This document shows, piece by piece, positions 40,076 to 44,434 of a DNA stretch of 64,000 nt. The translations under genes were made by a program, and so were the position numbers. Every line of letters starts with the position of its first letter. The stretch's first letter is position 1. This DNA comes from Agelas oroides (Eukaryota; Porifera; Demospongiae; Agelasida; Agelasidae). The DNA is taken from contig OX422183.1 in assembly GCA_949130485.1 (NCBI GenBank), positions 22,116,702 through 22,180,701 on the forward strand, given 5' to 3'. The notes beneath the pieces were generated by a model. That model was not told the origin of the DNA, made no database searches, and was given only the letters and a program-made list of their open reading frames with translations.

Positions 40076-42238
40076 ATGACCACCCGAGAAGATGATAATG
40101 GCTTTGAACAGGTCATTGAAGTTTCTGATACCTCAAAACTTGACTCCAATCCACTTAGTATGTACCTAGCTACTTAGAATGTAACAATTGAATAGAGGAC
40201 TCTCTGTTAAACTATCTCTTGATGAACATGGAATGTGCATGCACCGGGTGGAAACATAAGAGTTGTGTCATTTGCGAAACAAACTGCAATAACATAATGA
40301 TTGGTGCTGTGTGCAGATACACATGGCGCATGCAAACTAACCAAGGCCTTCGTGTACTGCAGCTGTATTATCAGTTTCTGGGTAATGTATATAGGAGAGA
40401 AGTTATCATCAGTCTGTAAGAATAAGTGCCAGCCCATCCATTCCATAGATTCAGCTGTATAATCAGTTTCTGGGTAACGTAGAGAGTAAGTATCATGTCA
40501 TTTACAATCCATAAAGAGGAGTGCCAGCCCATTTACATTTATATGTAAATGCATGTGTGACAGTCCCGTGTAGAAATCAAAGATTATTCCGTTGCGTATT
40601 TCGATCGCATCGGTAAGTTTGAAGTACCGTATTGCTGAACTTCCGTTAAGGGCGTGGCTCATACATGCTTCATCAGTCTGTAAGAATAAGTGCCAGCCCA
40701 TCCATTCCATAGATTCAGCTGTATAATCATCTAATAAGTCTATGAAGCGCGTATGAGCCCCGCCCTTAATGGAAGTTCAGAGAAACGGCGCTTTGAACAC
40801 AGCAATGCGATCGAAATACGAAACGGAAAAATCTTCGATTTCTGCATGGGCCTGCCACATGTGTGAATAGTTAGCTGCTCCAGACACTGATGGTACAGTG
40901 ACACAACTTTTAGGTCGTCATATAACGTTATGTTCTGTCTCACTGTTTGTTTCAGGTTTAGATGCTCTCTTTGATGTGCAAAAAGAGCTGAACCAAGTCT
41001 CTGGCAAGTGGAGGAGCATTGGAATTGCTCTGCGATTAGATCCTAATATTTTAGATGGCATACAAACCAAGAACAGTGGTGACCCTTCTACTTGCCTGTG
41101 TTCAATGGTGACAGAGTGGCTAAAGGGGAACTACAATGTGAAGAGGTTTGGTGAGCCATCCTGGCAGTTGTTGGTTGATGCAGTGGGTGACCCTGCAGGT
41201 GGAGCCCACATGGCACTGGCAAGAGACATAGCCAGGAGACACAAACTTAGAGGTACGTATGCCAAGTGGGTGTGCAGTATGAAGGTATCATAATCTCTGC
41301 ATGAAGAAATAAATGTAGTTGCTATAATAACTTTCGTGTACAACACTATTGTTCCCATTAATATATCGCACCATTACAATCCAGTCAGATTATACAAGTG
41401 GTGTGACCCAAGGACTGCTAACCTTCATCAGCAGCTATGTACCAATTTGTACAGTACTAATAATACTATAACCCATGTCTCCATGTCTCCCACTTCGTAA
41501 GCCACCACACGTGCAATTCCAACACAAAATGTATAGCTTTAGTTAATACTATAACCTATGTCTCCCACTTCCTAAGCCACCACACGTGCAATTCCAACAC
41601 AAAAGGTATACAGCTAACAAGCTTTAGTTAATCCACCACACTGTTCATAAACTACTTACCAATAGTTATAAAGCACATTTCACACTTCAACATTACCTAT
41701 GCCACTAACAACTATAAATCAACAATCAAGACAGCTAGCTGCCAGTTACCTGCATGAGTGTGCCTGGAGGTCAGTGAGCAGCAGTTGCAGTGTGGGAAGA
41801 GAAGGGAGAGAGGTTGGAAGCAGTGGAGTGGGTAGAGTGGACTTGCCAACAAACAACAGTAGCCTGGAAGCCTGCTCAACTTAAAGCATCTTCTAGGCAT
41901 CAAATCTTCCTTCATCACCCAAGAAAAAGAGCTCTTCTGAAAGGAATGGTATGAGGCTGTTGATGTAGAAGTGCAAATTTATTCTGCAAAGAGCCATGTG
42001 GTGCTGTTTCACATTTTAGACTTATGTGTTGAGATTATCATTTCATGCTAAAACCAAGGTGATTGCTCAAGTAGTTTGAGTTATGCCTGTTGTTGTTGAT
42101 GACAATGACAATGACAATGATGGCGATGATGATGATGATAATGATGGTGACAATGATGATGGTGACGATGATGATGATGATGGTGATGATGGTGATGATG
42201 ATGATGATGACGATGACAATGATGATGATGATGATGAC

Positions 42239-42276
<38 letters not shown>

Positions 42277-42489
42277 CAATGATGACGATGATGACGATGA
42301 TGATGATCACGATGATGACGATGTCGATGATGATGATGATGATGATGATGATGACGACGACGATAACGATCGTCATCATCGTCATCATTGCCATCATCAT
42401 CATCATCATTGTCATCGTCATCATCATCACCATCATCATCACCATCATCATCATCATCGTCACCATCATTGTCACCATCGTCATCATTG

Positions 42490-42524
<35 letters not shown>

Positions 42525-42564
42525 GTCATCGTCATCGTCGTCATCGTCATCATCGTCATCATTG

Positions 42565-42597
<33 letters not shown>

Positions 42598-42623
42598 ACA
42601 TCATCATCATTGTCACCATCATT

Positions 42624-42655
<32 letters not shown>

Positions 42656-44434
42656 GAGCAATTTCGCTACTGCAAACTTTCATGTTTAAATGTCTTCACA
42701 ATGCTTTTGGGGAACCTTAATACTCCCCCCAATGATGATAGCTGGGTGTTTAGATAAGCTTATAACACATTTGTGGCCGAGTCCTAGTGTTTTACTTAAT
42801 TATTGCAGATGTTGTGTGTCTGCACCATATTTCTCAGAGTCTACCTACTCTCTGAACTTAGCATATATAGCAGATATTGTTTACTATAAGTTGAGTGGTC
42901 TGAGTTTATTACGCATGTTTTTCCTCATTTTCTTACAGATCCATCCCCACTTTCTCTTCCTCCTCCTCTTGATCCTCATCATCCTCCTCACCATCATCCT
43001 CCTCACCATCATCCTCCTCACCATCATCCTCCTCACCATCCTCCTCCTCCCCATCATCATCCTCACCATCATCCTCCTCACCATCCTCCTCCTCCTCCCC
43101 ATCATCCTCCTCCTCCTCCATCTCGTCATCTTAGCATCGTTGTTCTCTTATTATCTGCATTCATTTTTATTTTTGTAATTGTTTGGTATCTCATACCTTC
43201 CCTCCCTTATCCTTTTCCTCTTCTTTCCCCTCTTTCTCCTTCTCGCAAATTTTTTGGCATCTTTGTTCTTTCTATGCTGTTCTTAATATTGATTTGGTAT
43301 CTCTTCCTATCTCCTCCTCCTCCGCCTCCCCCACCTCCCCCACCTCCTCCACCTCCTCATCATCCTCCTCCTAGCATATTTCCTCTCTCTATTCTGTTCT
43401 TAGTATTATCTGCATTGGTTTTGTATTTTTTACCTCCCATCCCTTCTACTCCCCTTCCCTCACCTTCTCATCAGTCACTGTGTCAATTCATGGTAGCAAA
43501 TTTCTCAACATATATGAAACAAAACAGTGAATACTTGAGCCCTCCATTCTACACGCACCCAAAAGGCTACAAACTGTATCTCTCTGTGTTTGCTAATGGC
43601 AGGAATAATGGTAAAGGTACTCATGTGTCAATCTACGCTACACTTATGAGAGGAGAATATGATGACCAACTGAAATGGCCATTCGAAGGTGATGTTGTTG
43701 TTGAGCTGCGTAACTGGAAGGAAGACAAGGGACATCACAAAGACACTTTTTCTTTTCCTATGATGGATGGTTACTACAGAGTCAATGGCAACAGCATGGA
43801 TGAACGTAAACTAGGACGTAATTTGTTCATTTCCCACTCCACCTTGTTATACAACTCCACCACCAACACACAGTACATTCAGGATGACTGCTTGTGCCTG
43901 AGAGTGAAGGCAATAGCAGTCTACTACACTTCCCAAGTCCCCAAAATTCCATCTTGGCAAGACCCTCTCACTCCTTCCCAATCACTCTATGAGTTCACAC
44001 TGACAGAATTCTCTAAGCGAAAGAAGTTTGACAATCAGTACTACAGCACCCCATTTTACACACACCCGACAGGCTACAAAATGTGCCTGGCTGTAGATTC
44101 CAAAGGCTATGGCAGTGGTAAGGGTACTCACGTCTCAGTCTTTGTCGCTGTTATGAAAGGGGAACATGATGACCAGCTCCAATGGCCATTTAAAGCCAAA
44201 ATAGTTGTTGAAATGGTGAACTGGATGGAGGACAAGGGACATCATGAAGTGACCTTTGATTTCACTGGAATAGACATAATCAACAGAGTAGCTGATGAGA
44301 ACAAAGTCAGAGGACCAAGATTTGGAAACCAGCAGTTCATCTCCCATTCCTCCCTGCCTTACAACCCCACCACAAACACAGAATACCTCCAGGATGATTG
44401 CTTGCGACTCAGAGTGAAAACAGTAATACTCTAA
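40076..44434 (+). CDS. Death domain - three membrane segments - twin MATH protein (copy A, intact)
   Basis: Model: exons 40076-40157, 40956-41252 and 42939-44434, both introns phase 1, 624 aa. Residues 1-27 are acidic. Exon 2 is one death domain (about 28-126; W-x2-IGIALRLD, CSMVTEWLKGNYN, W..LVD). Exon 3 encodes a Pro/His linker made by CCT/CAT repeats, hydrophobic segments near 191-212 (IVVLLLSAFIFIVIVWYL), 231-250 (GIFVLSMLFLILIWYLFL) and 276-293 (SILFLVLSALVLYF), each preceded by Pro-rich sequence, then MATH1 (about 306-456) and MATH2 (about 470-624). The MATH domains match TRAF-C: YKLYLSVFANG, GKGTHVSI, GE.D.QLKWPF. A death domain signals in apoptosis/NF-kB-type pathways and TRAF-C binds receptors and adaptors, so a membrane signalling role is inferred. 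TRAF RING and zinc fingers are absent. With three passes, the two ends lie on opposite membrane faces. Confidence 0.75.
40550..40865. mobile_element. Inverted-repeat insertion in intron 1 of copy A
   Basis: The arm at 40555-40670 (TTTCGATCGCATCGG, CTTCCGTTAAGGGCG) is the approximate reverse complement of 40742-40865 (CGCCCTTAATGGAAG, GCGATCGAAATACG). A short host segment (AGCCCATCCATTCCATAGAT) is repeated at 40433 and 40696. The matching place in block B (58955-59000) lacks it. Confidence 0.6.
42090..42657. repeat. GAT/ATC inverted microsatellite in intron 2 of copy A
   Basis: About 275 bp of GAT/GAC repeats is followed, across a short centre ACGATAACGATCGTC, by about 285 bp of CAT/CGT repeats, the complementary arm. 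The whole could fold into a long hairpin. Long open frames here (poly-Asp, poly-His, poly-Ser, poly-Met) are repeat translation and not genes. Confidence 0.9.

What the first reader, a model, noticed from the sequence alone, without database searches (positions are those of the whole stretch)
40076..44434. Death domain plus multi-pass membrane segments plus twin MATH domains in one protein
The intact copy joins a death domain, three hydrophobic segments separated by Pro/His linkers, and two TRAF-C-like MATH domains. In well-known animals these functions are split between receptors or adaptors (death domain) and TRAFs (MATH with RING and zinc fingers). Fusing the two interaction modules across a membrane would bypass the adaptor step. 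I do not know of a described family with this layout, but novelty has not been searched.
Basis: partly seen in the sequence, partly recalled or inferred. Interest (0 to 1): 0.85.

Follow-up and report, generated by a model that had tools for sequence, protein, structure and literature searches.

The report
Death domain joined to twin MATH
In what looks like a sponge genome, a small gene cluster joins a cell-death signalling domain to two TRAF-type MATH domains, in most copies through a stretch that reads as membrane-spanning, showing how this animal keeps assembling immune proteins from shared parts.

Summary
The described gene is there: exons 40076-40157, 40956-41252 and 42939-44434 join with GT..AG borders into a 624-aa frame. 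Both MATH domains are strong (Pfam E 2.4e-53). The death domain has no direct Pfam match, but 15 of 42 relatives from the same genome match Pfam Death (best 8e-6) and the family profile aligns with death domains of that genome (hhalign E 2.4e-7). Three hydrophobic segments exist on paper. Five related copies lie on one contig; four are damaged. Copy E joins the death-domain exon in frame to MATH without any membrane segment, so the membrane part looks like an optional cassette. The death-domain exon family (at least 150 loci) also precedes SH2, AIG1, NACHT or RING-MATH frames, and Kaur et al. 2021 already report MATH among partners of Death-like/TRADD-N proteins in Amphimedon. Verdict: a new variant of a known kind. 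Unusual are the hydrophobic cassette between death and MATH domains, the missing RING and zinc fingers, and probably repeated death-MATH joining. Expression, topology and function are unproven.

The parts
40076..40157 (+). Exon 1 of copy B (start codon; 27 residues plus one base)
   Evidence: homologous exon in copies A, C and D, all with a phase-1 donor
40956..41252 (+). Exon 2 of copy B: death-type domain (98 aa), phase-1 donor
   Evidence: family A3, Pfam Death in 15 of 42 members, hhalign; dN/dS .26-.29 among A, B, C
42939..43465 (+). First part of exon 3: Pro/His linkers and three hydrophobic segments (about 43136-43192, 43253-43309, 43376-43432)
   Evidence: acceptor present in copies A, B, C, D; segments resemble each other
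43466..43936 (+). MATH domain 1
   Evidence: Pfam PF21355 E 3.6e-26; dN/dS B-D .178 over 138 codons, B-E .165 over 155 codons
43979..44434 (+). MATH domain 2 and stop codon
   Evidence: Pfam PF21355 E 2.4e-27; dN/dS B-C .163, B-D .247
42094..42654 (.). GAT/ATC microsatellite palindrome inside intron 2 of copy B
23493..23583 (+). Copy A exon 1
24085..24384 (+). Copy A death-domain exon, intact
25231..26613 (+). Copy A exon 3: one in-frame hydrophobic segment and Pro/His tail, then a stop; MATH remains with 26 indels, 21 of them not a multiple of three
53946..54336 (+). Isolated, broken MATH-2 fragment
57576..57648 (+). Copy C exon 1 (found only by the later, more sensitive search)
   Evidence: blastn E 4.9e-11 to copy B exon 1; phase-1 GT donor at 57649
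59071..59367 (+). Copy C death-domain exon
59951..61045 (+). Copy C hydrophobic-segment region, frameshifted, with repeated units and, by eye, an extra stretch of about 0.5 kb
61070..62008 (+). Copy C MATH 1 (frameshifted) and MATH 2 (open, 93% identical)

Best explanation
It is one member of a small, fast-changing gene cluster made by exon shuffling. A death-type-domain exon, of a family that precedes many different domains in this genome, was joined to an exon with two TRAF-type MATH domains; a repeat-built hydrophobic cassette sits between them in copies A-D and was not found in copy E. The most likely product is a membrane-tethered signalling scaffold: the death domain assembles with itself or with the many other death domains of this animal, and the twin MATH domains bind partners. 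Lacking RING and zinc fingers it cannot itself be a TRAF-type ubiquitin ligase, so it would act as adaptor, competitor or decoy for the death-RING-MATH proteins of the same genome. I expect both ends in the cytosol with the cassette as anchor. Shown: exons, phase, domains, constraint on MATH and (in A/B/C) death domains, variable cassette. Inferred: translation of the cassette, membrane insertion, topology, binding, role.
For: Gene model; exon 1 with phase-1 donor in copies A, B, C, D. MATH domains. Death-type domain through its family. Exon-3 acceptor kept in the four cassette copies A-D. Copy E joins the death-domain exon to MATH in frame without cassette, the only in-frame acceptor found between them. 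Purifying selection: death domain dN/dS .26-.29 for A/B/C, 22 synonymous against 23 nonsynonymous lineage changes with about 3.4 times more nonsynonymous sites; MATH .16-.25 in the four long comparisons. First hydrophobic segment B-C: 14 of 60 bases differ, codon positions 4/1/9; random change keeps it as hydrophobic and stop-free in 2.7-4.6% of trials. Membrane-segment relatives: L065 reads as TM-Death, mid unit, RING/zinc finger-MATH-TM and L037 as death-family domain, mid unit, RING/zinc finger-MATH-TM (Pfam). Domain shuffling around this exon family.
Against: No transcript or protein evidence. No direct Pfam Death match. Four of five copies are damaged, so copy B may be on its way out too. 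B-D comparison: linker and cassette dN/dS .90, death domain .87 at low divergence; death domain B-E .56. In segment 1 B-C the number of amino-acid changes is not lower than chance (26-42% of trials). Three spanning segments would put the death and MATH domains on opposite sides. The TRAF peptide-groove residues (recalled: R, Y, D and the serine tongs) are changed in both MATH domains although three TRAF-like frames of the same genome carry the serine motif. Acceptor 43404 could yield a form without two of the segments.
Confidence: 0.5

Rival explanations
1. The real product is a soluble death-MATH-MATH protein. The hydrophobic tract is expanded simple-repeat DNA that is spliced out (acceptor 43404) or is a tolerated non-membrane linker.
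For: Copy E encodes death-MATH in frame with no hydrophobic tract. Acceptor 43404 joins the death exon in the MATH frame, with a 90% pyrimidine tract. Cassette dN/dS is about .9 between B and D. The tract is low-complexity.
Against: The 42939 acceptor is kept in the four cassette copies; three segments reach clear membrane-like hydrophobicity; segment 1 keeps hydrophobicity between B and C.
Confidence: 0.25
2. Decaying local gene family with no present function: the cluster duplicates and most copies die.
For: Copies A, C, D and E each carry frameshifts, truncation or an insertion: D has a 2-nt deletion at the start of exon 3 and a 4-nt deletion in MATH 1 (compared by eye), E an insertion of about 4.4 kb in MATH 2 whose open frames read by eye as retroelement. 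Death domain dN/dS is .87 B-D and .56 B-E.
Against: Copy B is fully open; death-domain changes look constrained on the A, B and C lineages, although A has lost its MATHs (syn/nonsyn A 7/8, B 8/9, C 7/6; neutral P .034.023.014, no transition weighting).
Confidence: 0.2
3. Receptor-like layout: death domain in the cytosol, three spanning segments, MATH domains outside the cell or in a lumen, as MATH domains are in meprins (recalled).
For: Odd number of segments; meprin beta appears as a weak PDB hit (E .007-.009); two possible N-glycosylation sites in MATH 1 read by eye.
Against: The MATHs lie nearer to RING/zinc-finger-MATH frames of the same genome than to anything secreted that I saw (no meprin was in the tree); by eye one glycosylation site is missing from D and the other from E; no extra cysteines by eye.
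Confidence: 0.12

Closest known systems
Amphimedon Death-like / TRADD-N lineage-specific expansion (Kaur et al. 2021, eLife, PMC8195603; 12 passages found by term, and section 10 read)
   Same: Death-like domain at the N-terminus, shuffled variable C-terminus that can be MATH or SH2, very large copy number in a sponge
   Different: No match to the TRADD-N-like mid unit between death and MATH domains here (0 matches in the window); hydrophobic cassette instead; twin MATH
TRAF family (TRAF1-6)
   Same: MATH domain, best PDB matches TRAF5, TRAF4, TRAF3, TRAF2
   Different: No RING or zinc fingers in the product, serine tongs missing, death domain added
Death-RING-MATH candidates of the same genome (L064, L065, L037)
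   Same: Death-type exon upstream of a MATH exon on the same strand (Pfam Death 3.5e-11 and 8.3e-12 for L064 and L065, MATH 1.3e-29 and 7.8e-28); L065 and L037 also carry hydrophobic segments
   Different: They have RING-like and zinc-finger stretches (above Pfam cut-off only in L064) and the mid unit; their MATHs form a separate clade (99/97) from the cluster's MATHs (84/97)
Zinc finger-coiled coil-twin MATH frame L066 of the same genome (read by eye, no Pfam scan)
   Same: Two MATH domains in tandem; its MATH 1 is the closest non-cluster match of window MATH 1 among the rows compared (46%)
   Different: TRAF-like N-terminus, no death domain and no strongly hydrophobic segment in the fetched stretch

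Membership tests
TRAF family | C-terminal MATH (TRAF-C) domain | tested here: met
   PF21355 E 2.4e-53, two stretches
TRAF family | RING and TRAF-type zinc fingers | tested here: not met
   Pfam at E<=1 gives only MATH families for the 624-aa product
TRAF family | Receptor-peptide groove (serine tongs; residues recalled from TRAF2) | tested here: not met
   SSSF motif present in L059, L060 and L063 but absent from both window MATHs (alignment)
TRAF family | Trimerising coiled coil | not tested
   no coiled-coil program was run
Death domain superfamily | Pfam Death match of the domain itself | tested here: not met
   0 families
Death domain superfamily | Homology to Pfam-Death domains through its family | tested here: met
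   15 of 42 members match PF00531, best 8e-6; hhalign prob 93.5, E 2.4e-7 over 59 columns
Death domain superfamily | Six-helix death fold | tested here: inconclusive
   AlphaFold2 pLDDT 54.9, five helices; no PDB match with E<=0.001
Death-like/TRADD-N sponge expansion (Kaur 2021) | N-terminal Death-like domain with a shuffled C-terminus | tested here: met
   one-gene status of each arrangement inferred from order and strand
Death-like/TRADD-N sponge expansion (Kaur 2021) | TRADD-N domain after the Death-like domain | tested here: not met
   mid-unit queries hit 9 of the 20 loci L019-L038 (L033 only at 23-24% identity) but not the window; the unit's identity as TRADD-N is itself unconfirmed
Membrane receptor with death domain | Membrane-spanning segments | tested here: inconclusive
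   hydrophobic windows present, translation and insertion not shown

The most novel reading that the evidence does not exclude
A new class of single-chain, membrane-tethered death-MATH signalling proteins, in which a repeat-built hydrophobic cassette of variable length was inserted between a shuffled death domain and TRAF-derived twin MATH domains. Death-MATH fusions arose more than once in this genome, tying death-fold and TRAF signalling to membranes without a separate adaptor.
Probability: 0.35. Interest if true: 0.7.

Novelty: new variant of a known kind. Interest (0 to 1): 0.48.

Why it matters
In well-studied animals death domains and TRAF MATH domains meet through separate adaptors such as TRADD. 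A genome that appears to encode both in one chain in several clusters, sometimes with RING fingers and membrane segments, makes it possible to ask which contacts of the pathway are essential and how early animals built immune signalling. It also bears on the statement of Kaur et al. that MATH is not correspondingly expanded where TRADD-N is expanded: this genome has at least 150 MATH exon matches besides its death-domain expansion.

Tried and rejected
Viral-contig scans with MATH 1 and with the death domain found no relatives; plasmids gave no match. AlphaFold2 with three sequences was too poor to use, and its PDB fold search gave nothing at E<=0.001. CLK2 as best PDB profile hit was judged a chance match: it covers about half of the profile, at a kinase N-terminus. 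TRADD-N identity of the mid unit could not be confirmed by Pfam or PDB profile. Alignment A2 misplaced copy C's MATH 1 and was not used. dN/dS rows 'TM1 B-C' and 'TM3 B-C' used wrong frames and are dropped; TM1 was redone. Two short rows (TM2 B-C2: 0 synonymous, 4 nonsynonymous; TM2 B-C1: ratio 1.2) compare frames of copy C that are out of its spliced frame and are not used as support. My first view that copy C lacks exon 1 (one search missed it, as it missed copy A's) was wrong and was corrected. Skip-splicing of the death exon to the acceptor at 43475 was rejected because the phase does not fit. Copy-number counts are lower bounds: only 150 candidates were scored of 870 (Death), 610 (death-domain family) and 212 (MATH). 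A whole-genome search for the hydrophobic cassette did not complete. In the ten paper searches I saw no description of a death-membrane-MATH layout; they cover open-licence PMC papers only, and most hits were seen as listings. Papers opened: PMC8195603 (passages and section 10), PMC6321704, PMC6208332, PMC5094078 (passages).
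Full report
What was checked. The finding describes a three-exon gene at 40076-44434. Joining 40076-40157, 40956-41252 and 42939-44434 gives an uninterrupted 624-residue frame with GT..AG borders. Pfam finds two MATH domains far above threshold and the PDB relatives are TRAF5, TRAF4, TRAF3 and TRAF2.

Why it is nevertheless called a death-type domain. The window lies at G000:C1:22116702-22180701 of a 259 Mb genome in 141 contigs. A search with the domain gives 150 scored loci of 610 candidates. I aligned 42 domains: three window copies, 20 from 19 of the 20 long regions fetched, and 19 of 20 short exons, with L027 and L039 left out. 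15 of these 42 match Pfam Death, best 8e-6, and the profile aligns with eight Pfam-Death domains of the same genome at prob 93.5, E 2.4e-7, over 59 columns. The hand-copied lists of Pfam-Death hits (149 of 150) and of family hits (150) do not overlap, so this is a divergent subfamily. Structure prediction from three sequences was too poor to help, and the PDB profile's best hit is an unrelated kinase.

The copies. Besides copy B there are four relatives on the same contig. Copy A (23493-26613) keeps exon 1, the death domain and one in-frame hydrophobic segment, then stops; its MATHs carry 26 indels, 21 not a multiple of three. Copy C (57576-62008) has exon 1 (missed) and the death domain but is frameshifted in the cassette and MATH 1, while MATH 2 is open. 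Copy D (L019, minus strand, about 0.35 Mb away) has exon 1, death domain, three segments and both MATHs at 84-100% identity, but carries a 2-nt deletion at the start of exon 3 and a 4-nt deletion in MATH 1 (read by eye). Exon 1 ends with a phase-1 donor in A, B, C and D. Copy E (L020) has death domain and MATH 1; an insertion splits MATH 2, no hydrophobic region was found, and exon 1 gave only a weak match. In copy E the only in-frame acceptor found between donor and MATH joins death domain to MATH directly. This is the best evidence that the two domains belong to one gene, and it suggests that the cassette is optional.

Selection. dN/dS (Nei-Gojobori) for the death domain is .276 (B-C).290 (B-A) and .257 (C-A); MATH 2 B-C .163; MATH 1 B-D .178 and B-E .165, MATH 2 B-D .247. 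Short pieces of MATH 1 B-C gave .308 and .039, and the 53946 fragment .48. Against a uniform picture, the death domain is .867 B-D and .555 B-E, and the linker plus cassette .902 B-D at low divergence. Lineage-specific death-domain changes (syn/nonsyn) are A 7/8, B 8/9, C 7/6, so copy A's death domain looks as constrained as those of B and C although its MATHs are gone.

The hydrophobic cassette. Three windows reach membrane-like hydrophobicity. The tract is pyrimidine-rich and stop-poor, so openness alone means little, and another frame is even more hydrophobic. In its favour: the acceptor is kept in the four cassette copies, copies A and C carry an in-frame hydrophobic segment right after the splice, segment 1 B-C differs at codon positions 4/1/9 with hydrophobicity kept (2.7-4.6% of random trials), and the units resemble each other to varying degree (0 to 105 of 1000 shuffles reach the observed score over the ten pairs). 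Against: amino-acid changes in segment 1 are not fewer than chance (26-42% of trials), D is out of frame there, acceptor 43404 would drop two segments in frame, and dN/dS is near .9 B-D.

Genome context. MATH exons number at least 150 (150 scored of 212 candidates). With the lists, 14 of 150 MATH exons have a death-type exon upstream on the same strand within 10 kb, in clusters on C1, C6 and C20; as controls, 11 have one downstream on the same strand and 1 on the opposite strand within 10 kb (at 3 kb: 8, 4 and 0), so much of the proximity may be tandem clustering. Five of 150 death-family exons have a MATH downstream within 10 kb. Reading two further regions and L037 shows frames in the order Death, mid unit, RING-MATH (L064), TM-Death, mid unit, RING/zinc finger-MATH-TM (L065), and death-family domain, mid unit, RING/zinc finger-MATH-TM (L037). 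Pfam supports Death in L064 and L065 (3.5e-11, 8.3e-12) and MATH in all three; RING passes the Pfam cut-off only in L064 and stays below it in L037 and L065. The mid unit of L064 and L065 matches that of L022 at 61% and 35%. Elsewhere the same death-domain family precedes SH2 (L023, E 1.9e-20), AIG1 (L036, 4.5e-26) and NACHT (L026, 1.4e-15) frames; six frames were scanned in that call, one of which (the L037 mid unit) matched nothing and one (L025) only weakly. That each forms one gene is inferred from order and strand. In a 15-row MATH tree the six cluster MATHs group (84/97) apart from the L037/L064/L065 clade (99/97), which suggests but does not prove separate origins of death-MATH joining.

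Known work. Kaur et al. 2021 (PMC8195603; section 10 read) report 357 TRADD-N proteins in Amphimedon, mostly with 1-3 N-terminal Death-like domains and a variable C-terminus that can include MATH, SH2, ankyrin, kinase and more. The present gene fits this theme but has no match to the mid unit and has the cassette. The same paper states that MATH is not correspondingly expanded in organisms with TRADD-N expansion; this genome seems to differ, with the caution that the mid unit was not confirmed as TRADD-N.

Mechanism and verdict. Both MATHs lack the serine tongs kept by three TRAF-like frames of the genome (groove residues recalled), so they probably bind other partners than classical TRAF receptors. 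Without RING the product cannot ubiquitinate by itself. I therefore favour a tethered adaptor or decoy with both ends cytosolic, at about even odds, with soluble, decaying and receptor-like readings as rivals. The finding is real anatomy in a known kind of shuffled immune gene, with an unusual and unproven membrane cassette.

Noticed in passing
window 52129-52740, minus strand: 204-aa open frame with a Tlde1 domain (PF10908, E 3e-7, 31.3 bits against a cut-off of 30.1) after an apparent signal sequence. Tlde1 is, from recall, a bacterial peptidoglycan-acting domain, so possible transfer into an animal genome.
   Followed up: partly
window 63547-63999: HTH_psq open frame (E 3e-11), reaching the window end; reads like a pogo-type transposase N-terminus.
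   Followed up: no
window 42094-42654: About 560-bp GAT/ATC microsatellite palindrome in intron 2 of copy B; copy D has a longer related tract.
   Followed up: partly
L065:374-5047 and L037:1459-6774: Candidate genes with death-type domain, mid unit, RING/zinc-finger-like stretch, MATH and C-terminal hydrophobic segment; in L065 also a hydrophobic segment just before the death domain. Possibly more striking than the window gene.
   Followed up: partly
G000 as a whole: At least 150 MATH exon matches besides large death-domain expansions, against the published remark that MATH does not expand together with TRADD-N.
   Followed up: partly
L022, L024, L025, L030, L031, L032, L037, L038, L064, L065: Conserved mid unit of about 250 aa after the death-type exon with no convincing Pfam or PDB match; position fits TRADD-N of Kaur et al.
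   Followed up: partly
window 9522-9821 and 11212-11511: 300-bp direct repeats 1690 bp apart, reported 100% identical, perhaps terminal repeats of a young mobile element.
   Followed up: no
window 48651-49158: Tandem duplication of a 254-bp unit, 99-100% identical.
   Followed up: no
window 38521-38584: Weak tRNA-like match (30.5 bits, gathering 29), possibly a tRNA-derived repeat.
   Followed up: no
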